Below are positions 1 through 6,409 of a DNA stretch of 6,488 nt, one piece after another. The stretch spans positions 1 to 6,488 of the forward strand of contig VXRS01000064.1 of assembly GCA_009838385.1 (NCBI GenBank), read 5' to 3'. The notes beneath the pieces are model-generated. The model saw only the letters and a list, made by a program, of their open reading frames with translations. It had not been told where the DNA came from and searched no databases. The stretch comes from Dehalococcoidia bacterium. GTDB taxonomy: Bacteria > Chloroflexota > Dehalococcoidia > Tepidiformales > Tepidiformaceae. Made by a program: the position numbers and the translations under genes. Every line of letters begins with the position of its first letter. Within the stretch, counting starts at the first letter, position 1.

Positions 1-200
1 ATGCCTGGGTGCGCCGCTTCGGCCAGATGGTGAGCGAGGAGGAGGAGCGCGAGGCGCTCGAGCTGGAGATCGAAGCGCAGCATTACTTCAAGAAGGTGTT
101 CGACCGGCTGCGGGAGGAGCCCGACGACACACTCCTCTCGGACCTCGTGAACACCGAGATCCCCGAGTGGGGGCGGACGCTCACGGACGGCGAGCTGCAG
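1..200 (+). pseudogene. Cytochrome P450, upstream half (5'-partial, interrupted)
   Basis: This is the middle of a bacterial cytochrome P450, a heme monooxygenase. The frame is open from base 3 at the left edge and gives about 66 residues. It holds an acidic amphipathic helix (a run of Glu, then EAQHYFKKVFDRLREEP), the segment DDTLLSDLVNTEIPEW, and then LTDGELQ. This is the usual P450 order of G/H helices, the 'D-L-(I/L)-S-x-L-V' segment and 'LTDEEL' just before the I-helix. The I-helix does not follow. It is found in the right frame at 3712, so the gene is split by the inserted block. P450-like coding stops at CTGCAG (195-200); the next bases belong to a zinc-binding phage gene in another frame. 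Glu codons here are almost all GAG, as in the downstream P450 half and unlike the insert. The GTG at 9 is only an internal codon. Family assignment is strong because the other half carries all diagnostic motifs. Confidence 0.85.
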
Positions 201-206
201 TTGTTC
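195..206. other. Left junction, P450 to phage block
   Basis: P450 reading ends with Glu-Leu-Gln (or Glu-Leu-His if only CA of the last codon is original). The phage zinc-binding gene is in frame from base 202 (TGT TCG GGG TGC = C-S-G-C). One or two bases (200-201) are not clearly assigned to either parent. No repeat of more than one or two bases is shared with the right junction at 3706-3714. Confidence 0.7.
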
Positions 207-324
207 GGGGTGCTACCTCCGCGTGGGCGCCCGCCACGGGCCCTACGTCGAGGACATCGACGACAAGGGGCGGCAGCGGGCGGCGTATTGCCCGCCATGC
301 TTCCGCCAGGCGGTCGGGCGATGA
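202..324 (+). pseudogene. Small CxxC...CxxC zinc-binding phage protein, C-terminal 40 codons
   Basis: Frame starting at 202 reads C-S-G-C, then about 25 residues with an acidic VEDIDDKG stretch, then C-P-P-C and a short basic tail, ending at TGA 322-324. The stop overlaps the ATG of the resolvase gene as ATGA, a normal phage gene boundary, so this is a genuine gene end and not a chance frame. It has no start codon of its own here because the block begins in the middle of the gene. The missing start is at the other end of the block (3678-3710). Joined, they give a 51-residue protein with Cys at 12, 15, 41 and 44, a minimal zinc-ribbon or treble-clef pattern. The function is unknown; such small proteins are common in phage early regions. 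Zinc binding is inferred from the Cys spacing only. Confidence 0.7.
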
Positions 325-827
325 CGGCGGTGTACGTCGGCATCGACGTGGGACTCACCGGCGCCGTGGCGGTCGTCGACGAGGCCGGTGACCTGGTCGA
401 GGTCCACGACACCCCGACCGCGAAGGTCGGCAAGCGCAACGAATACCTCGCGGCGGACATGGGCGACCTACTGGATGGCGTCGATGCCATCGGCGACATC
501 GCCCTCGCCGCTGTCGAGCACCAACAAACGATGGGGCCGCGCGACCGTAGCGGGCCCGTGGGGATCTTCCGCCTCGGCTACGGGTTCGGGTTGTGGAAGG
601 GCATCCTCGCGGGGATGCGGATCCCCCAAACGACCGTGCGCCCCCAGAAGTGGAAGCGCGCGGCGAACATCCCGTCCGGGGCGCCCAAGGGCGCGTCGCG
701 GGTGGCGGCGATGGAGCGGTGGCCCCACCGGGCCGCGTGGTTCCAACGCCAGCGGGACGACGGGCGGGCGGACGCGGCGTTCATCGCCGCCTACGCCCGC
801 TCACAAGCGATGGAGGCGAAACCGTAG
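321..827 (+). CDS. RuvC-like Holliday-junction resolvase (phage type)
   Basis: 168 residues, start ATG 321 overlapping the stop of the zinc-binding gene (ATGA). The N-terminus VGIDVGLTGAVAVVD is the first strand pair of the RNase H/RuvC fold with catalytic Asp9. ALAAVEHQ supplies Glu66, and the C-terminal RDDGRADAAFIAAYAR gives the last acidic residues (Asp147 and Asp151), matching the D-E-(D/H)xxD layout of RuvC. Length is near that of RuvC (about 170 aa), and the central segment with W-K-G-I and RPQKWKR resembles phage RuvC-like proteins, which cut branched recombination or replication intermediates before packaging. It likely works with the RecT-like protein in the same block. The frame is also open upstream through the junction into the P450 fragment, so a longer reading frame exists, but that extension mixes three unrelated readings. 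Start choice is supported by the ATGA overlap and the motif position. Confidence 0.85.
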   Translation: MTAVYVGIDVGLTGAVAVVDEAGDLVEVHDTPTAKVGKRNEYLAADMGDLLDGVDAIGDIALAAVEHQQTMGPRDRSGPVGIFRLGYGFGLWKGILAGMRIPQTTVRPQKWKRAANIPSGAPKGASRVAAMERWPHRAAWFQRQRDDGRADAAFIAAYARSQAMEAKP

Positions 828-1333
828 TGGCACATCCGGGATTCAACACCGCATGGGCGCAGACCGAGGACGAACTCGGTGAGACGTTCCGCAAATGGGG
901 CGTCGACACGTGGAACATCGAACGCGGATACCGGGGTCAGAAGGTGTACGGGCTGACCCCGGAACAACGCCGGGTCACCGTGAAGTGGCAGTCGCCCGAC
1001 GGTCGCCCCGCGGCCCTGTCGTGCGACGAACACGACACCCCGAAGGAGAACCTACGCGCCCTGTACCTCGGCATCGAAAGCTACCGGCTGAACGAATACC
1101 GGGGCGTGGGGAACATCGTGGCGGCGGCGTACGCGCAGCTCGCGGCGCCGGCGTCCGCCGACCCGTTCTCGGTGTTGGGCGTCGGGCGCGACGCGTCCAA
1201 TGACGACGTGCGGGCGAAGTGGCGCGAGCTCGCCCAGGAACACCACCCGGACCACGGGGGCGACCCCGCGCGGTTCCGGGAAATCACCGCGGCGCGCGAC
1301 GACATCCTGAGCGAGCGGGAGGCCGCGTCGTGA
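827..1333 (+). CDS. J-domain (DnaJ-like) phage protein
   Basis: 168 residues, GTG start at 827 sharing one base with the resolvase stop (TAGTG). The C-terminal part, from about residue 112, is a compact J domain: DPFSVLGVGRDAS, a helix with VRAKWRELAQEH, the invariant His-Pro-Asp at 140-142 followed by HGG, then FREITAARDDIL. The HPD loop is the residue set by which J proteins stimulate the Hsp70 ATPase. The N-terminal 110 residues (FNTAWAQTEDELGETFRKWG; QRRVTVKWQSPDGR; LYLGIESYRLNEYRG) are not a known chaperone module. They look like a separate beta/alpha domain, so the J domain is C-terminal rather than N-terminal as in DnaJ. The likely role is recruiting host DnaK to a phage replication or assembly complex; this is inferred. 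It is translationally coupled to both neighbours. Confidence 0.8.
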   Translation: MAHPGFNTAWAQTEDELGETFRKWGVDTWNIERGYRGQKVYGLTPEQRRVTVKWQSPDGRPAALSCDEHDTPKENLRALYLGIESYRLNEYRGVGNIVAAAYAQLAAPASADPFSVLGVGRDASNDDVRAKWRELAQEHHPDHGGDPARFREITAARDDILSEREAAS

Positions 1334-1581
1334 GCGACGCCCAACACCGCGCCGCCGTCCGGTACGCGAAGCTCACCAAACAGGCGGCGGGCCTCGCGTA
1401 CCAGGCGTCGTTGGGGAACGTCACCCCCGACGACTACCGCAAGCGCATGGACAAACTGACCCCGCGCATCGAACGCGCCCGCGTCCTCGCCGGCATCAAC
1501 TACGAACCGGTCGAACTCCCCCCGGAAGGGGACCGCCGCCTGGCGGCCGCGTTGTTCGGCGCACCACCCGAGGAGGGGTAG
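1330..1581 (+). CDS. Small helical phage protein, unknown function
   Basis: 83 residues. GTG 1330 overlaps the stop of the J-domain gene in GTGA, the same coupling used twice more in this block. The protein is mainly helical: AQHRAAVRYAKLTKQAAGLAYQAS, then TPDDYRKRMDKLTPRIERARVLAG, then a Pro-rich tail ending GAPPEEG. It has no Cys, no TM segment and no recognised motif. I do not recognise the family. The basic, helix-turn-helix-like balance of the first 55 residues could suit a nucleic-acid or protein adaptor, but nothing specific supports it. A longer frame runs upstream to 1219 but lies inside the J domain, so the overlap start is preferred. Reality as a gene rests on its exact fit between two genes. 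Confidence 0.65.
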   Translation: MSDAQHRAAVRYAKLTKQAAGLAYQASLGNVTPDDYRKRMDKLTPRIERARVLAGINYEPVELPPEGDRRLAAALFGAPPEEG

Positions 1582-1583
1582 CC

Positions 1584-1787
1584 ATGGACACCACGACCGT
1601 TTGGGTCGTCACCATGATCGTGTCGACGGCGCTGTTGGCGTTCGTCGCCTACGAACGGGGGCGGTCGCCCGCCTGGGGCGCGCTGGGCCTCGTGTTCGGC
1701 GTGTTCGGGTTGGTGCTCGGGATCATCATCCTGGTCGTCGTCCCGTCCCTGCCACGGCGCCGCCGCGACGACGGGGGCGACCAGTGA
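1584..1787 (+). CDS. Small two-TM membrane protein
   Basis: 67 residues, ATG at 1584 preceded by GAGGAGGGG, a strong ribosome-binding site located in the end of the previous gene. Two hydrophobic segments are visible: about residues 5-22 (TVWVVTMIVSTALLAFVA) and 31-54 (WGALGLVFGVFGLVLGIIIL and onward), joined by a short loop with ERGRSP. The C-terminus is a basic Arg cluster followed by DDGGDQ and should face the cytoplasm by the positive-inside rule. Small two-TM proteins in phage genomes can be holins, superinfection-exclusion proteins or uncharacterised membrane proteins. Its place among replication genes with no endolysin nearby argues against calling it a holin. Function is therefore left open. 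Confidence 0.7.
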   Translation: MDTTTVWVVTMIVSTALLAFVAYERGRSPAWGALGLVFGVFGLVLGIIILVVVPSLPRRRRDDGGDQ

Positions 1788-2185
1788 AGGCCATCACGCT
1801 ATGGCAACCGTGGGCGTCGTTGATCGCCGCCGGAATCAAGACCGCCGAAACCCGGTCGTGGCAGCCGCCGGCGACGCTCGTGGGTCAGCGCATCGCCATT
1901 CACGCGGGCAAGGAAATGGTGCTCACCCACGACCACCGCGTCGAGGCGACGCTCCAGGCGGAGTTCGGGGACAACTGGCCCTATGACCTGCCGCGCGGGT
2001 TCGTCGTTTGCACGGCGGTTCTGACGCGCGTGTGGGCGACGACCGACCGACCGGCGCGGTACGGGGTCGATGTCTATGGCGACTACAGCCCGGGCCGCTA
2101 CGTGTGGGAGCTCGACGCCATCGACGCGCTCGACGACCCCGCCCCCGCGGTCGGGCATCAACGCATTTGGGAGTGGGCGGCGTGA
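1784..2185 (+). CDS. ASCH-domain protein
   Basis: 133 residues, GTG 1784 overlapping the previous stop in GTGA. The N-terminus MKAITLWQPWASLIAAGIKT followed by AETRSW is the classic ASCH opening, with the signature G-x-K-x-x-E-x-R at residues 17-24. The central segment GQRIAIHAGKE and RGFVVCTAVLTRVW form beta strands of the PUA-like barrel, and the end has YVWELDAI...RIWEW, as in other phage ASCH proteins. ASCH domains are PUA-related and bind RNA or modified nucleosides; a few are nucleases or deaminase-type amidohydrolases. In phages they occur often in early regions with no proven job. Length is typical for a single-domain member. Exact function here is unknown. Confidence 0.85.
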   Translation: MKAITLWQPWASLIAAGIKTAETRSWQPPATLVGQRIAIHAGKEMVLTHDHRVEATLQAEFGDNWPYDLPRGFVVCTAVLTRVWATTDRPARYGVDVYGDYSPGRYVWELDAIDALDDPAPAVGHQRIWEWAA

Positions 2186-2343
2186 GCCACTTCCCGCAAC
2201 ACCGCCACCTATGGACCTGCAACCTCATCGTCGACGGCGTCACGTGCGGCAAGGTCAGTCGGAGGAATCGGTCACGGGGGAGGCACGCCGGGGCGAGCGA
2301 CACCAAACGCTCACCCTCACCCGGGCGCAGTTCTCCCACCTGA
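2182..2343 (+). pseudogene. His/Cys-rich small protein, 5' part only; hybrid tail after scar
   Basis: GTG 2182 overlaps the ASCH stop in GTGA, so this is a genuine gene start. The first 24 residues, MSHFPQHRHLWTC then NLIVDGVTCGK, show His3, His7, His9, Cys13 and Cys22, plausible metal ligands. After about 2254 this frame turns into a low-complexity Arg/Ser/Pro reading (SRRNRSRGRHAG...) ending at 2343. At the same place another frame becomes clear RecT-like protein. The simplest reading is that the 3' part of this gene was lost at a breakpoint and only the first 70 or so bases are original. A complete 53-residue gene of its own is possible but would overlap the RecT-like coding by about 90 bases, unlike the other boundaries here. 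Confidence 0.55.
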
Positions 2344-3068
2344 AGACCCCGACGTGGGCCGACTACCCGATGGACATGCTCGTGGCGAAGGTGCAGAGCC
2401 GCCTCGCCGCGCAGTTGTTCCCGGACATCCTCGGGGGGATGCAGGCGGTTATGGCCCACGGGCAACGCCTCGACATCACGCGTGACGTGGCGCCGGACGC
2501 CGACCCGGTGACTGGTGAGATCGTGGAGGGCGAGGTTGTCGAGGGGCTGCCAGAAGCGGCGCCCGCGCCGCCGCCGGAGCCACCGCCCGACGACGCGCGC
2601 CTTTGTGTCGCGTGCGACGAACCGCTCGCCCACAACGAACAGGAAGTGTGCGCCCGTTGCGGCGCGGACCCCGACGACGACCTCCGCGTGGGCGACGACC
2701 TGCCCCCGGGTTACGACGAAGGCGACCCGGTCGACGACGAACCCGCCGCCGAAGTAGACGAACCGGCCGCGTCGAACGACACCGGCGACACGACCGTCCC
2801 CGCGCTCCGCAAGCGCCACAAGGGGGACAAGCACGCCGCGCTGACGGCCGCCGACTTCATGGCGGTGTCGCGCATGGTGCAGGCGTTCGACTTCCCCGAG
2901 GGGATGGGCGCGGTCCGGTTGATCCGCGGCTGGCCCACGACCGACGACGGGCGACCCAAACCCATCAACAAGGAGGCGGTGACCGAATGGTGCGTGACGT
3001 ACGCCGCCCCGGGTCAGGGCCTCGACATGATCGCGCACGAACTCACCATCCTGCAGGCGAACCGGTAG
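2244..3068 (+). pseudogene. RecT-like ssDNA-annealing protein, C-terminal part, with zinc-ribbon tail
   Basis: From GTG 2244 this frame gives 274 residues. Residues 12-66 (GEARRGERHQTLTLTRAQF, then PTWADYPMDMLVAKVQSRLA, then LFPDILGGM) match the C-terminal part of the RecT annealase core: the W-x-x-Y-P-x-x-M-L motif, the following helix and F-P-D-(V/I)-(L/I)-G-G. RecT proteins anneal single strands in phage recombination. The first 120 or more residues of the family are missing, replaced by the end of another gene, so the product should be inactive as an annealase. The tail starts with a VTGEIVEGEVVEG linker common in RecT proteins, a Pro-rich stretch, a four-Cys zinc ribbon (C121, C124, C136, C139), a long acidic linker (residues 142-182), and a folded C-terminal domain (about 196-274). 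GTG 2244 has no good ribosome-binding site. The family call rests on one motif block, hence moderate certainty. Confidence 0.6.
2245..2285. other. Internal scar joining His/Cys-rich gene to RecT-like gene
   Basis: Coding character switches from frame 1 (His/Cys protein) to frame 3 (RecT-like protein) inside this stretch, with no start codon plus ribosome-binding site for the second gene. A RecT-family protein should have well over 100 further residues upstream of the homologous part. The position of the breakpoint is inferred from protein content and is uncertain by about 20 bases. Confidence 0.55.
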
Positions 3069-3099
3069 GCGCGCGACCCGCGCCGGAAAGGACCAACCC

Positions 3100-3432
3100 A
3101 TGCCGAACGACGACCAGGCGGGCATGTGGGACGTGGACATCACCACGCCCGAACTCGCCGCCCACATCGACACGATGGAGGAACACCGCGAAGCGCGCAC
3201 GGCGTACGACCGCGCGTACAAGGCGGTCAAGGAGGCCATCGGACTCGCCCACGAACGCATCCGGGACACGGTCGGCGCTGACGCCTACGAGGCCGGCGGC
3301 GCGCGCGTCCGCATCGGCGGGTTCGTGTACCGCGTCGGCGTCCGCGAGGGCGGGGACATCGCCATCGAACCGTGGAAGCGGGACGCGGCGATCCTCGGCA
3401 AACCCAAACCCATCGCCGAGGACGGGGACTAG
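3100..3432 (+). CDS. Unidentified phage protein, 110 aa
   Basis: 110 residues, ATG 3100 preceded by GGAAAGGA at 3086-3093, a good ribosome-binding site in the only real intergenic gap of the block (31 bases). Visible parts: an acidic N-terminus ending in WDVDITTPEL, a long charged helix (residues 18-60, including MEEHREARTAYDRAYKAVKE and AHERIRDTVG), then a small beta unit VRIGGFVYRVGVREGGDIAIEPW and a basic/Pro tail. I do not recognise the family. The layout, a helical pair followed by a beta hairpin, recalls small proteins often found next to RecT/RecE-type recombination genes, but this is context only. Glu codons are split evenly between GAA and GAG (5:5), as in the rest of the block. Confidence 0.7.
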   Translation: MPNDDQAGMWDVDITTPELAAHIDTMEEHREARTAYDRAYKAVKEAIGLAHERIRDTVGADAYEAGGARVRIGGFVYRVGVREGGDIAIEPWKRDAAILGKPKPIAEDGD

Positions 3433-3435
3433 CCG

Positions 3436-3675
3436 ATGATGAAAGCAATCGCCTACGGACCTATCGGGCACACGATCTGGCGCCAGGAGACGAACGGGGG
3501 CGAGGGGGTGCGGTACTGGATTGGCGAAAGCCACGGCGAGGCCCACGAAGCGGTGTCGCGGACGGCATTCCTCGCCACGCGCGCCGACCTTATCAACCAC
3601 CTTCTCGAAGCGCACGCCGACGAAGTCACCGAGCTTTTGGATGGTCAGATCATCCACCACGAGTTGGAGGGTTAG
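3436..3675 (+). CDS. Unidentified small phage protein, 79 aa
   Basis: 79 residues starting at ATG 3436 (ATG 3439 is an alternative, since the protein begins Met-Met). GGGGACT just upstream lies in the end of the previous gene and serves as a weak ribosome-binding site, giving a 3-base gap and probable coupling. The sequence has a beta-rich first half (AIAYGPIGHTIWRQETNGG, then VRYWIGESHGEAHEAVS) and a helical second half (RADLINHLLEAHADEVTELL) ending IIHHELEG. It has several His but no clear metal motif, no TM segment and no Cys. Family not recognised. It directly precedes the zinc-binding gene start, with two bases between its stop and that ATG. Confidence 0.65.
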   Translation: MMKAIAYGPIGHTIWRQETNGGEGVRYWIGESHGEAHEAVSRTAFLATRADLINHLLEAHADEVTELLDGQIIHHELEG

Positions 3676-3677
3676 TG

Positions 3678-3710
3678 ATGTCGTGGCGCGTCGGGACCGA
3701 CACGTCCACG
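3678..3710 (+). pseudogene. Small CxxC...CxxC zinc-binding phage protein, first 11 codons
   Basis: ATG 3678 follows GGAGG at 3666-3670 and comes two bases after the stop of the previous gene, the normal spacing in this block. It reads M-S-W-R-V-G-T-D-T-S-T up to base 3710 and is then cut by P450 sequence. Adding the codons from 202 continues it as C-S-G-C and on to a proper stop at 324. Staying in frame across the junction instead would run to 3914 as an Arg-rich shadow of the P450 gene. That fusion is very unlikely to be a real protein. Confidence 0.65.
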
Positions 3711-3714
3711 TGCC
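3706..3714. other. Right junction, phage block to P450
   Basis: The phage gene is in frame to 3710 (TCC ACG). The P450 frame resumes at GCC 3712 (Ala-Glu-Met-Met). T3711 fits either side: as the first base of the TGT Cys codon of the zinc gene, or as the last base of a CAT His codon in the P450. Thus at most a one- or two-base overlap is shared with the left junction. Confidence 0.7.
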
Positions 3715-4242
3715 GAGATGATGTCGGACACCTTCGTGGGCGGCTCCGAGACGAGCACGAACGCGATCGGCGAGGGCGTCAAGATCCTGATCGAGCAGCC
3801 AGAGATCTGGGAGCAGCTCAAATCGGACCCGGACCAGTACCTGCGTACGTTCGTGGAGGAGGTGCTGCGGCTGGAGTCACCGGTGCAGATGCTGGGGCGG
3901 GTCGCGCTGAATGACGTCGAGATGCACGGCGTCACGATTCCGGCGGGGGCATCGATCGGGACGCGCTACGCCGCCGCCAACCGCGACGAGCGGCGCTTCG
4001 AGTGTCCGGCGGACGTGGATCTGGAGCGCAAGAACCCGATGGCGCACCTCACGTTCGGGGCGGGGATCCACTACTGCCTCGGGGCGCCGCTCGCCCGTCG
4101 CGAGCTGTACTACAGCTTCAAGACGCTCGTGGAGCGGGTCGACGAGATGTGGTTCGCGCCCGGCAAAAACGACTTCAAGCACCACCCACACATGTTCCTG
4201 AGGGCGCTCAAGGAGCTCCACATCGAGTTCAAGGCGAAGTAG
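3712..4242 (+). pseudogene. Cytochrome P450, downstream half with heme-binding loop
   Basis: 176 residues from Ala (3712) to the TAG at 4242. All hallmark P450 elements of the C-terminal half are present in order. AEMMSDTF is followed by the I-helix oxygen-activating motif GGSETST. EVLR is the K-helix ExxR (Glu 3859-3861, Arg 3868-3870). AANRDERRFECPADVDLER is the meander region, and HLTFGAGIHYCLGAPLARREL is the heme loop FGxGxHxCxG with the thiolate Cys at 4075-4077. The gene ends with HPHMFLRALKELHIEF, as in many bacterial soluble P450s. The N-terminal half is at 1-200. The join falls between the LTDGEL turn and the I-helix, so neither piece can make a working enzyme. ATG 3718 or 3721 could in principle start a fragment, but no ribosome-binding site precedes them. 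All 17 Glu codons are GAG. The stop lies 9 bases before the next gene. Confidence 0.9.
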
Positions 4243-4251
4243 GGAGCGGCC

Positions 4252-5481
4252 ATGTACCCGAAACGAAGGAGTTGGAGCCCCTGGCTGGCCGTGGTCGCCG
4301 CCCTCGCCCTTGTCGCGGGGACGCTCGCGGCCTGCGGCGACGAAGAGCAGCCGCCCCTCAGGATCGGCGTGATGCTGGTCAACAGTGAGACGCAAACCGA
4401 CACGGCTCTCGACCGGCTGCGCGCCTTCAAGCTCGCCATCAAGCACGTGAACGAGGCAGGGGGCGTCTTCGGCCAGCCGGTGGAAGTTGTGGAAGGCGAC
4501 ACCCTCAACCCCCAGGAGGAAGCGCGACGCTTGATCGAGGAGGAGGGCGTCCATGCCATCGTCGGACCCAACTCCAGCGCGGACTCGCTTCTGGCGATCG
4601 AGGTCGCGGCGCCGGCGGGGGTGCTGGTGATCAGCCCTTCCGCTTCTTCTCCCCTCCTCACCGCCAACGAGGACGGCGACCTCTTCTTCCGCACGGTCCT
4701 CTCCGACGTCGCCCAGGGGCCCGCGCTGGCTCAGCTCACGCGCGAGCGGGGTTTCGACAACGTGGGCGTGATCTACCGCGACGACGCCTGGGGCCAGGGT
4801 CTGGCTGAGGCCTTCCGGGGAGCGTGGACGGGCGGCATCGTCGCTGTCAGCTCTCCCGCCGAGTTGCAGGAGAGCTACCTCGACCTCATCGAGGAGAGCG
4901 CGCGCGAGGGAGCCCAGGCGCTCGTCCTGCTCACCTTCTGGCCCGAGGGCGAGACCATCCTCAGGGAGGCGCTCGATAGCGGCCTGTACGAACAATTTCT
5001 CTTCGGCGACGCGTTGCGGGTGGCCGATGTCGCCGAGGCCGTCGGTGGGGGAAGGCTGGCCGGCATGTACGGCACCGTCAGCAGCCCCTCCCACGAGAAT
5101 CCGTCCACCGCGATCTGGGAAGAAGCCTTCCGTGACGAGTACGGGAGGGGGACAGAGGCCACCTACGTCAGGGAAACCTACGACGCCACCATTGCGATCG
5201 CCCTCGCGGCGGAGGAAGCGGGCGAGGCCGAGGGAACGGCCATCCGTGACGCGCTCCGCGGCATCGGCGCCGCACCTGGCGAGCACGTCCGGCCCGGGGT
5301 GGAAGGCATCGCCCGCGCCCTGAGCGTCATCCGGGACGGAGACGAAGTGGACTACGCGGGAGCCTCTGTCTCCATGGACTGGGACGAACACGGCGACCTC
5401 CGGCGGGGCTACATCGGCATCTGGCGGTTCACGGCAGATGCCGCGATCGAAGACGTAGACGTCATCGCCTACGAGCGCTGA
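4252..5481 (+). CDS. ABC transporter substrate-binding lipoprotein (LivJ-like, Peripla_BP_6 type)
   Basis: 409 residues, ATG 4252 after GGGAGC, 9 bases behind the P450 stop. The N-terminus has a basic start (YPKRRSW), a hydrophobic stretch (WLAVVAALALVAGT) and the lipobox L-A-A-C at residues 25-28, so Cys28 should be lipidated and the protein held outside the membrane. The mature part begins PLRIGVMLV and contains lobe-type elements of branched-chain amino-acid-type receptors: a helix after AFKLAIKHVNEAGGVFGQPVE, the GVHAIVGPNSSADSLLA segment, VLVISPSASSPLL, and GFDNVGVIYRDDAWGQGLAE. Length is typical. The ligand cannot be read from sequence: the family binds amino acids, amides, aromatic acids and other small molecules. 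No permease or ATPase gene is in the window. Between a P450 and a flavin monooxygenase-like gene it may bring in, or sense, their substrate (inference). Confidence 0.88.
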   Translation: MYPKRRSWSPWLAVVAALALVAGTLAACGDEEQPPLRIGVMLVNSETQTDTALDRLRAFKLAIKHVNEAGGVFGQPVEVVEGDTLNPQEEARRLIEEEGVHAIVGPNSSADSLLAIEVAAPAGVLVISPSASSPLLTANEDGDLFFRTVLSDVAQGPALAQLTRERGFDNVGVIYRDDAWGQGLAEAFRGAWTGGIVAVSSPAELQESYLDLIEESAREGAQALVLLTFWPEGETILREALDSGLYEQFLFGDALRVADVAEAVGGGRLAGMYGTVSSPSHENPSTAIWEEAFRDEYGRGTEATYVRETYDATIAIALAAEEAGEAEGTAIRDALRGIGAAPGEHVRPGVEGIARALSVIRDGDEVDYAGASVSMDWDEHGDLRRGYIGIWRFTADAAIEDVDVIAYER

Positions 5482-5497
5482 CGCAAGGAGACTGACG

Positions 5498-6409
5498 ATG
5501 CGTATCGGGATCTCGATGACGACGGCGTTGCGGGCGCCAGATGCGCGCACGGGCGGCCGGTGGCTCGTCGAGCGGGCGGCGGCGGCGCGCGAGGCGGGGC
5601 TCGACAGCCTCTTCGTGGGCGACCATCACAGCACCGCGCCGATGAGCTACTACCAGAACGTCCCGGTGCTCGGCCGGGTGCTAGCGGAGTGGAACGACCG
5701 GCCGGCGGGAGCGCTCTTCCTGCTGCCACTCTGGCACCCGGTGCTGCTGGCGGAGCAGATCGGGACGCTGGCGGCGCTGCACACGGGCCCGTTCGTGATG
5801 CAGTGCGCCATCGGGCCGGACGACAACCAGTTCCCGGCCTTCGGCGTGAACGTGAAGCACCGGCCCTCGCGCTTCGAGGAATCACTCGACATCATGCGGC
5901 GGCTGTGGGCGGGCGAGACGGTAAGCTCGGAGGGGCGCTGGCAGATCCAGGACGCGCGCATCAGCCCCGTACCGCCGGACGGGGTGGAGGTGTGGATCGG
6001 GGCGGTGGCGAGGCGCGCGATCGACCGCGCGGCGCGGCTCGGGGACGGCTGGCTGGCTTCGCCGGGACTGACGGCGAAGCAGGCAGCGGCGCAGTCGGCG
6101 GAGTACCACGAACGGCGACAGATCCACGGCCACCAGGAGACGGGTCCGGTCGCCATCAGGCGCGACATCTACGTCGGCGAGAGCGACGAGGAAGCGCAGG
6201 AAGCGGCGCGGGCGGTGGTGGAGTCGGGCTACCGCGGTTTCGACAGCGAGGCGCTGGCGATCGGCAGTCCTGAGACGGTCGCGGGGCAGTTCAGGGCGCT
6301 GGAGGACTCCGGATACACGGACGTCATCGTGCGCAACCTGATGCCGACGCAGGAGCACGCAGTGGGGTCGATCCGGCGACTGGCGGAGGTGCGGGCCAGC
6401 CTGGCGTAA
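5498..6409 (+). CDS. LLM-class flavin-dependent oxidoreductase (luciferase-like)
   Basis: 303 residues, ATG 5498 after AAGGAG, 16 bases behind the binding-protein stop. It has the TIM-barrel pattern of luciferase-like F420- or FMN-dependent enzymes: MRIGISM as strand 1, AREAGLDSLFVGDHHS as the second strand with its acidic and His residues, LAEQIGTLAALHTGPFVMQCAIG, FAAFG-like segment FPAFGVNVKHRPSRFEESLDIMRRLWAGE, then VEVWIGA...AIDRAARLGDGWLASPG near the cofactor phosphate region, and a C-terminal IGSPETVAGQFRALEDSGYTDVIVR. The RFEESLDIMRRLW helix and W-I-G-A...R-A-A-R-L-G-D-G-W are strong family marks. Length is usual (about 300-340). Sequence alone does not tell FMN from F420 or give the substrate. 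With the P450 and uptake protein it suggests oxidative breakdown or modification of a small organic compound. By hand count 18 of 22 Glu codons are GAG. Confidence 0.9.
   Translation: MRIGISMTTALRAPDARTGGRWLVERAAAAREAGLDSLFVGDHHSTAPMSYYQNVPVLGRVLAEWNDRPAGALFLLPLWHPVLLAEQIGTLAALHTGPFVMQCAIGPDDNQFPAFGVNVKHRPSRFEESLDIMRRLWAGETVSSEGRWQIQDARISPVPPDGVEVWIGAVARRAIDRAARLGDGWLASPGLTAKQAAAQSAEYHERRQIHGHQETGPVAIRRDIYVGESDEEAQEAARAVVESGYRGFDSEALAIGSPETVAGQFRALEDSGYTDVIVRNLMPTQEHAVGSIRRLAEVRASLA

What the first reader, a model, noticed from the sequence alone, without database searches (positions are those of the whole stretch)
202..3710. The block is circularly permuted: its two ends rebuild one intact gene
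The right end holds a start codon with ribosome-binding site and 11 codons (M-S-W-R-V-G-T-D-T-S-T). The left end begins in frame with C-S-G-C and continues to a stop with the usual ATGA overlap. Joined, they give a 51-residue protein with two CxxC pairs 26 residues apart, flanked by correctly spaced neighbours on both sides. An ordinary linear insertion or a random phage piece would not place the two parts of one gene at its outer ends. This points to a circular DNA of about 3,509 bp, or a circular phage genome, opened at that point. It has no recognisable integrase.
Basis: partly seen in the sequence, partly recalled or inferred. Interest (0 to 1): 0.85.

Follow-up and report, generated by a model that had tools for sequence, protein, structure and literature searches.

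The report
Permuted phage fragment splitting a gene
A 3.5-kb piece of phage DNA, apparently with its genes in a rotated order, sits cleanly inside a cytochrome P450 gene of a Chloroflexota bacterium; it looks like a break-repair accident rather than a working mobile element.

Summary
The block is real as sequence, and its borders can be fixed. Intact P450 genes in related Dehalococcoidia MAGs show the empty site. The insert is window 202-3712 (3511 bp, not 3509), with no target base lost or duplicated and no junction microhomology. Any one-directional phage piece carries a 3' gene remnant on the left and a 5' remnant on the right. Random cut pairs join in frame 34% of the time, 48% if 1-4 shared bases may be merged. 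The true ends join out of frame unless a shared TG is counted once. No homologue of the left piece was found.

The rotation has better, independent support. The RecT-like gene at 2244-3068 lacks the first part of its core and lies after ASCH. In five of six phage records with a RecT/Bet gene plus RuvC, DnaJ or ASCH, RecT/Bet lies upstream on the same strand. So an inner junction lies near 2256.

Best reading: phage DNA circularised, or broken and rejoined in swapped order, then captured at a chromosomal break by Ku/LigD, which 8 of 9 relatives encode. A chimeric contig is not excluded.

The parts
1..201 (+). 5' part of a cytochrome P450 gene (host flank), ending at the insertion point; the window begins here
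   Evidence: 198 of 199 positions (3-201) identical to intact P450 in L001 (alignment)
202..3712 (+). inserted phage-derived block, 3511 bp, TG at both ends
   Evidence: empty site contiguous in L001; left junction 201|202, right junction 3712|3713; no microhomology
202..324 (+). 3' part (40 codons plus stop) of a small two-CxxC protein gene, ATGA overlap with the next gene
   Evidence: sequence; codon score; no homologue found and no PHROG
321..827 (+). RuvC-like Holliday junction resolvase, phage type
   Evidence: phrog_1770 E=1.8e-30; best other relatives 46-49% identical
827..1333 (+). DnaJ-domain phage protein
   Evidence: PF00226 E=3.5e-9; phrog_9210 E=1.5e-26
1333..1581 (+). small phage ORF, no family
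1584..1787 (+). small hydrophobic ORF, no firm family
   Evidence: weak matches only
1784..2185 (+). ASCH-domain protein
   Evidence: PF04266 E=1.3e-7; phrog_3193 E=1.4e-30
2182..2256 (+). 5' remnant of an unidentified gene, cut at the inner junction (end approximate)
   Evidence: codon score falls in this frame from the 60-nt windows starting at 2212 on
2244..2274 (.). zone of the inner junction between the remnant gene and the RecT-like gene; exact base unknown
   Evidence: frame switch; confident similarity to P0002 begins near window 2274
2244..3068 (+). 3' part of a RecT-like single-strand annealing protein gene, N-terminal part missing
   Evidence: 61% identical to P0002 (460 aa), aligned from P0002 residue 194 onward; phrog_4171 positions 175-288, weak E=0.019; P0002 matches 8 Gordonia phage records, 6 of them annotated RecT-like, E 7e-5 to 5e-3
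3100..3432 (+). phage ORF, no family
3436..3675 (+). phage ORF, no firm family
3678..3712 (+). 5' part of a gene: start codon and 11 codons in all, then TG, cut at the right border
   Evidence: sequence; codon score +3.1 in frame
3713..4242 (+). 3' part of the cytochrome P450 gene (host flank)
   Evidence: PF00067 E=1.2e-20; 509 of 530 positions identical to L001

Best explanation
A stretch of a tailed-phage recombination module, running in the phage from the middle of a RecT-like gene through the two-CxxC gene, RuvC, DnaJ and ASCH into the next gene, was broken out of a phage genome. Its two far ends were joined to each other (inner junction near 2256), most simply as a 3.5-kb circle. It was opened inside the two-CxxC gene and ligated without homology into a double-strand break in a chromosomal P450 gene of a Dehalococcoidia-like bacterium. 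Host Ku and LigD end joining is the most likely agent. Shown: clean insertion against the empty site, no homology at the borders, RecT-like gene truncated against its one close relative. Supported by comparison with distant phages: rotated gene order. Inferred: the circle, the break, Ku/LigD as the agent, and that the block is a dead passenger that inactivated the P450 gene.
For: Empty site uninterrupted in all 13 loci printed, L001-L008 the closest; no target loss or duplication against L001. Zero contiguous microhomology at both junctions. RecT-like gene truncated against its 460-aa relative. Coding frame changes near 2256. RecT/Bet lies upstream of RuvC, DnaJ or ASCH on the same strand in 5 of 6 records with both kinds of gene (L041, L112, L126, L131, L143); opposite strand in the sixth, L044. 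In the window it follows ASCH. In L041 about 570 bp separate RecT and RuvC. L104 has a 48-aa two-CxxC gene overlapping a RuvC start by ATGA, with 10 residues before the first Cys. Ku in 8 of 9 and LigD polymerase in 8 of 9 relatives, the matched stretches 2.0-2.8 kb apart in 7 of those 8. No integrase in the ORFs scanned.
Against: No reads, no sequence of a free circle and no phage parent were available, so the rotation rests on distant relatives: three at under 2 kb (L041, L112, L143) and two at about 5 kb (L126, L131). No single relative carries all the genes. The RecT-like genes of L112 and L044 were not found by PF03837; they rest on tblastn and, for L112, PHROGs. In L143 the only RuvC-like match lies far away on the other strand. 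In L111 a weak DnaJ match (E=0.005) follows ASCH, contrary to the window's order, though the PF00226 search did not confirm it. An internal deletion in a linear phage would also truncate RecT, and then no circle is needed. The end-piece join is out of frame unless TG is counted once. With that TG removed, 9 of 20 bases left of the cut agree between donor and target, somewhat above chance. L104's small protein shows no significant similarity to the left piece (E=0.085). Ku/LigD was found in relatives, not in the window's own genome; L006's genome lacks both.
Confidence: 0.5

Rival explanations
1. The contig is a chimera made during library preparation or assembly; the P450 gene is intact in the organism.
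For: The left flank is only 201 bp and runs to the end of the window, so one junction rests on little sequence. The identical RuvC protein is listed with one contig, longest 2012 bp, and P0001 with two contigs, so the phage DNA may also exist apart from this contig.
Against: Both flanks belong to the same P450 gene with not one base lost or gained against L001, which random ligation would not be expected to give. No shared word at either junction that an assembler could cross on.
Confidence: 0.22
2. A linear phage piece in native order inserted; its phage lineage simply carries a shortened RecT-like gene after ASCH, and the two end remnants come from two different genes.
For: Any co-directional piece leaves such end remnants; the in-frame chance is 34-48%. 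The same shortened 274-aa protein is listed on two contigs, so the inner arrangement may be a stable feature. No homologue joins the end pieces (both searches have limited reach).
Against: RecT/Bet upstream of RuvC, DnaJ or ASCH in 5 of 6 records. The shortened gene lacks the start of the annealing core. The L104 arrangement parallels about 10 residues ahead of the first CxxC.
Confidence: 0.15
3. Two phage fragments sharing one break were ligated into the P450 break in swapped order; no circle ever existed.
For: Would give the same three junctions and the same TG at both outer ends as an opened circle (inference; borders, inner junction).
Against: Needs both fragments to land in the same orientation and in one particular order, which a circle gives for free (inference, not calculated from data).
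Confidence: 0.1
4. A small circular satellite element that is integrated at a specific site by a recombinase supplied in trans.
For: Clean target; TG at both ends resembles a 2-bp core; 9 of 20 bases agree left of the cut if that TG is set aside.
Against: With the ends as they stand, target and donor arms share only 4 of 25 and 5 of 25 bases, and the target has no TG at the cut. No integrase and no replication gene recognised in the ORFs scanned.
Confidence: 0.03

Closest known systems
Bacterial non-homologous end joining (Ku plus LigD)
   Same: Joins ends without homology (established knowledge). Mycobacterial LigD polymerase is described as adding templated and nontemplated nucleotides (PMC8068969, passages seen). 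A 2006 review suggests that bacteria with Gam and other Ku homologues take up and integrate foreign DNA (PMC1378119, passages seen).
   Different: Capture of a rotated phage piece was not in the passages seen; here the agent is inferred from relatives only.
Synechococcus phage Ssp-JY39 (PP438429)
   Same: Bet upstream of a DnaJ protein of the same family, phrog_9210, same strand.
   Different: A NinB-like and an unknown gene lie between; the RuvC-like match is elsewhere on the other strand; the block had no DNA match in the phages collection.
IMG/VR contig behind L112
   Same: RecT-like, CxxC-rich protein, DnaJ-domain protein, ASCH in that order on one strand.
   Different: No RuvC match; RecT-like 27% and ASCH 43% identical, DnaJ alike only at family level.
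IMG/VR contig behind L041
   Same: RecT upstream of a phrog_1770 RuvC by under 1 kb.
   Different: No DnaJ match in the record and no ASCH match in the 10.8-kb locus.

Membership tests
Integrated prophage or integrative element | integrase or transposase gene in the element | tested here: not met
   none in Pfam or PHROGs scans of the block ORFs
Integrative element (site-specific) | core sequence shared by target and element | tested here: not met
   no contiguous shared bases at the junctions
DDE transposon or IS | target-site duplication | tested here: not met
   window flanks abut exactly as in L001
End-joining capture of foreign DNA | junctions without homology | tested here: met
   0 bp at both outer junctions; the inner junction could not be tested without its parents
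End-joining capture of foreign DNA | host encodes Ku and LigD | tested here: inconclusive
   Ku in 8 of 9 and LigD polymerase in 8 of 9 relatives, one of the latter over the curated cut-off; the window's own genome is not held
Circular DNA opened and inserted | outer ends continuous in the donor | tested here: inconclusive
   no homologue of the left piece; rotated gene order fits distant phages
Circular DNA opened and inserted | free circle exists | not testable with these tools
   no reads; metagenome contig scans are capped at zero
Complete circular phage genome | full replication and structural gene set | tested here: not met
   only recombination-type, ASCH, DnaJ and unknown small genes recognised; RecT-like gene truncated

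The most novel reading that the evidence does not exclude
Phage fragments are circularised inside uncultured Chloroflexota and persist as small circles that enter chromosomes by Ku/LigD end joining, a homology-free and integrase-free route of phage gene capture.
Probability: 0.2. Interest if true: 0.6.

Novelty: new member of a known kind. Interest (0 to 1): 0.33.

Why it matters
If real, it is a base-resolution natural record of homology-free capture of phage DNA in an uncultured bacterial lineage whose relatives carry Ku and LigD, together with a rotation that hints at a circular intermediate. It also warns against reading the 274-residue open frame across the left border as a P450-RuvC fusion protein.

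Tried and rejected
Transposon or IS: no target duplication, no transposase recognised. Serine or tyrosine recombinase site: no shared core at the cut. Complete mini-phage: truncated RecT-like gene, no structural or replication gene recognised. In-frame rejoining as proof of a circle: rejected as weak by simulation. Tetranucleotide signature of the block against host pieces: correlations 0.25-0.48; non-overlapping host pieces correlate 0.21-0.62 with each other (the 0.62 pair is partly the same genes), so not informative.

Led nowhere: DNA search of the block in phages (no match). Single-protein IMG/VR scans with RuvC, the RecT-like protein, P0002 and the 3100-3432 ORF (none confirmed) and with DnaJ (4 distant loci). 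The left piece: protein database (none; the method needs three shared 5-residue words), tblastn in phages (only tape-measure matches at E 0.6-2), PHROGs (none), and local tblastn against the loci held (none). The right piece is too short to search. RuvC in 393 class genomes (4 matches, best-scoring 41% identity) and in 400 phylum genomes (4 weak matches); P0002 in 5 close genomes (0) and in 400 phylum genomes (2 matches, zinc-ribbon part only): no prophage copy seen there. DnaJ in 393 class genomes matched 378, in the capped list mostly over the J-domain alone, so uninformative. RuvC in plasmids: 4 records, 30-37% identity, not pursued. Two-CxxC gene next to RuvC: of 79 loci tested, 5 were flagged by pattern and only L104 looks like a real gene by my own reading.

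Literature: seven searches listed no title on rotated phage fragments captured by end joining; most subscription papers are not held, so this is no proof of absence. PMC3102665 was looked at in passages and gave nothing on this point.
Full report
What was checked. The window is a 6488-bp sequence; the protein database lists the longest contig with its RecT-like protein as 6488 bp, so it is probably a whole contig. No genome is held for it.

Borders. The 174-residue P450 part at 3718-4242 was used to find relatives in genome contigs: 18 loci, the closest from MAGs titled Dehalococcoidia or Chloroflexi. In L001 window 1-201 aligns to 3795-3995 and window 3713 onward to 3996 onward, with nothing between. 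The site is uninterrupted in all 13 loci printed. Left flank identity to L001 is 198 of 199, right P450 part 509 of 530. The insert is therefore 202-3712, 3511 bp. No target bases are missing or doubled, and neither outer junction shows contiguous microhomology.

Contents. RuvC-like resolvase (phrog_1770, 1.8e-30), DnaJ-domain protein (phrog_9210, 1.5e-26), ASCH protein (phrog_3193, 1.4e-30) and a RecT-like protein, all on one strand, with small unassigned ORFs. The RecT-like assignment of the window's piece alone is weak (phrog_4171, E=0.019). It is firmer through P0002, a 460-aa relative with 61% identity and the only other protein found. P0002 matches 8 Gordonia phage records, 6 annotated RecT-like and 2 hypothetical, at E 7e-5 to 5e-3 within residues 104-298, and a RecT-like gene of L112 at E 1e-9. 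The window's protein is alike only from P0002 residue 194 onward, so the first part of the core is missing.

Inner junction. By the block's own codon usage the coding frame is that of the gene starting at 2182 in the windows up to about 2197 and that of the RecT-like gene from about 2257 on (60-nt windows). Confident similarity to P0002 starts near 2274. A gene remnant and a headless RecT-like gene thus seem to meet near 2256. The database lists the 274-aa protein, whose start at 2244 lies at or before this zone, on two contigs. If the second contig is independent, the inner junction exists outside this one.

Outer ends. In 200,000 random cut pairs within this block, 33.6% rejoin in frame, 48.2% if 1-4 shared end bases may be merged. 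With the true borders, the ends agree in frame only if the TG present at both ends is counted once. A 2-nt staggered cut with fill-in, or added nucleotides, would explain the TG (inference). No homologue of the left piece was found. Its sequence is not significantly similar (E=0.085), and it is one of 79 loci tested.

Gene order in other phages. Evidence comes from tblastn against the loci held and from PF03837, PF00226 and phrog_1770 searches. The first two families were run on 50 of the 126 viral and phage loci held, mostly long ones, the third on 9. PF03837 was met in 5 of 50, PF00226 in 3 of 50. Six records have a RecT or Bet gene plus at least one of RuvC, DnaJ and ASCH. It lies upstream on the same strand in five: L041 (RuvC about 570 bp after RecT), L112 (DnaJ, then ASCH), L143 (Bet, then DnaJ about 1.5 kb on), L126 and L131 (ASCH about 5 kb on). 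In L044 it is on the other strand. The RecT-like genes of L112 and L044 rest on tblastn, not PF03837. L148, L149 and L150 have RecT-like genes but no second marker in their 12-kb loci and no RuvC in their records. Against this, L111 has a weak DnaJ match after ASCH (E=0.005), not confirmed by PF00226; in L143 the RuvC-like match is elsewhere; in the record of L135 a weak DnaJ match (below the cut-off) and ASCH are on opposite strands. In the window the RecT-like gene comes after ASCH. Reading the block as a circle gives the commoner order.

Mechanism. Shown: foreign phage-type DNA and a clean homology-free insertion; by comparison, a rotated order. Inferred: a circle, a chromosomal break, ligation by Ku and LigD. 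Ku was found in 8 of 9 relatives, LigD polymerase in 8 of 9 (one over the curated cut-off, seven below it with E of 3.5e-33 or better). The genomes are those of loci L001-L008 and L012; L006's lacks both. Mycobacterial LigD adds templated and nontemplated nucleotides (PMC8068969, passages). A 2006 review suggests a Ku-like role in integrating foreign DNA (PMC1378119, passages).

Verdict. Ordinary in kind, unusual in detail. An artefact remains possible because the left flank is 201 bp and no reads were available; the loss-free target argues against it.

Noticed in passing
window 3-827: The P450 5' part reads in frame through the left border into RuvC as one 274-residue open frame; an automatic gene caller could report a false P450-RuvC fusion.
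   Followed up: yes
P0002 (longest contig 5675 bp, source jgi): A 460-aa RecT-like protein listed with a SWIM zinc finger (PF04434) and, by similarity to the window's protein, a zinc ribbon after the annealing core (sub-cut-off DZR matches in the window's protein); an unusual domain order.
   Followed up: partly
L107, L108: Two of 400 genomes of the phylum encode proteins similar only to the zinc-ribbon part of P0002 (residues 300-352).
   Followed up: no
   Followed up: partly
window 4252-6409: Two ORFs of 409 and 303 aa follow the P450 gene; they look like a solute-binding lipoprotein and a flavin-dependent oxidoreductase (recalled resemblance, not searched). The DNA across both aligns in L001, L002, L004 and L005.
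   Followed up: no
P0001 and P0003: Identical block proteins are listed with other contigs (two contigs for P0001; one contig, 2012 bp, for P0003), so the phage DNA may occur elsewhere in the sampled data.
   Followed up: partly
L001, L002, L004, L005, L008: The bin names of the closest MAGs look like marine sponge samples (recalled, from no call), which would make the host a sponge symbiont.
   Followed up: no
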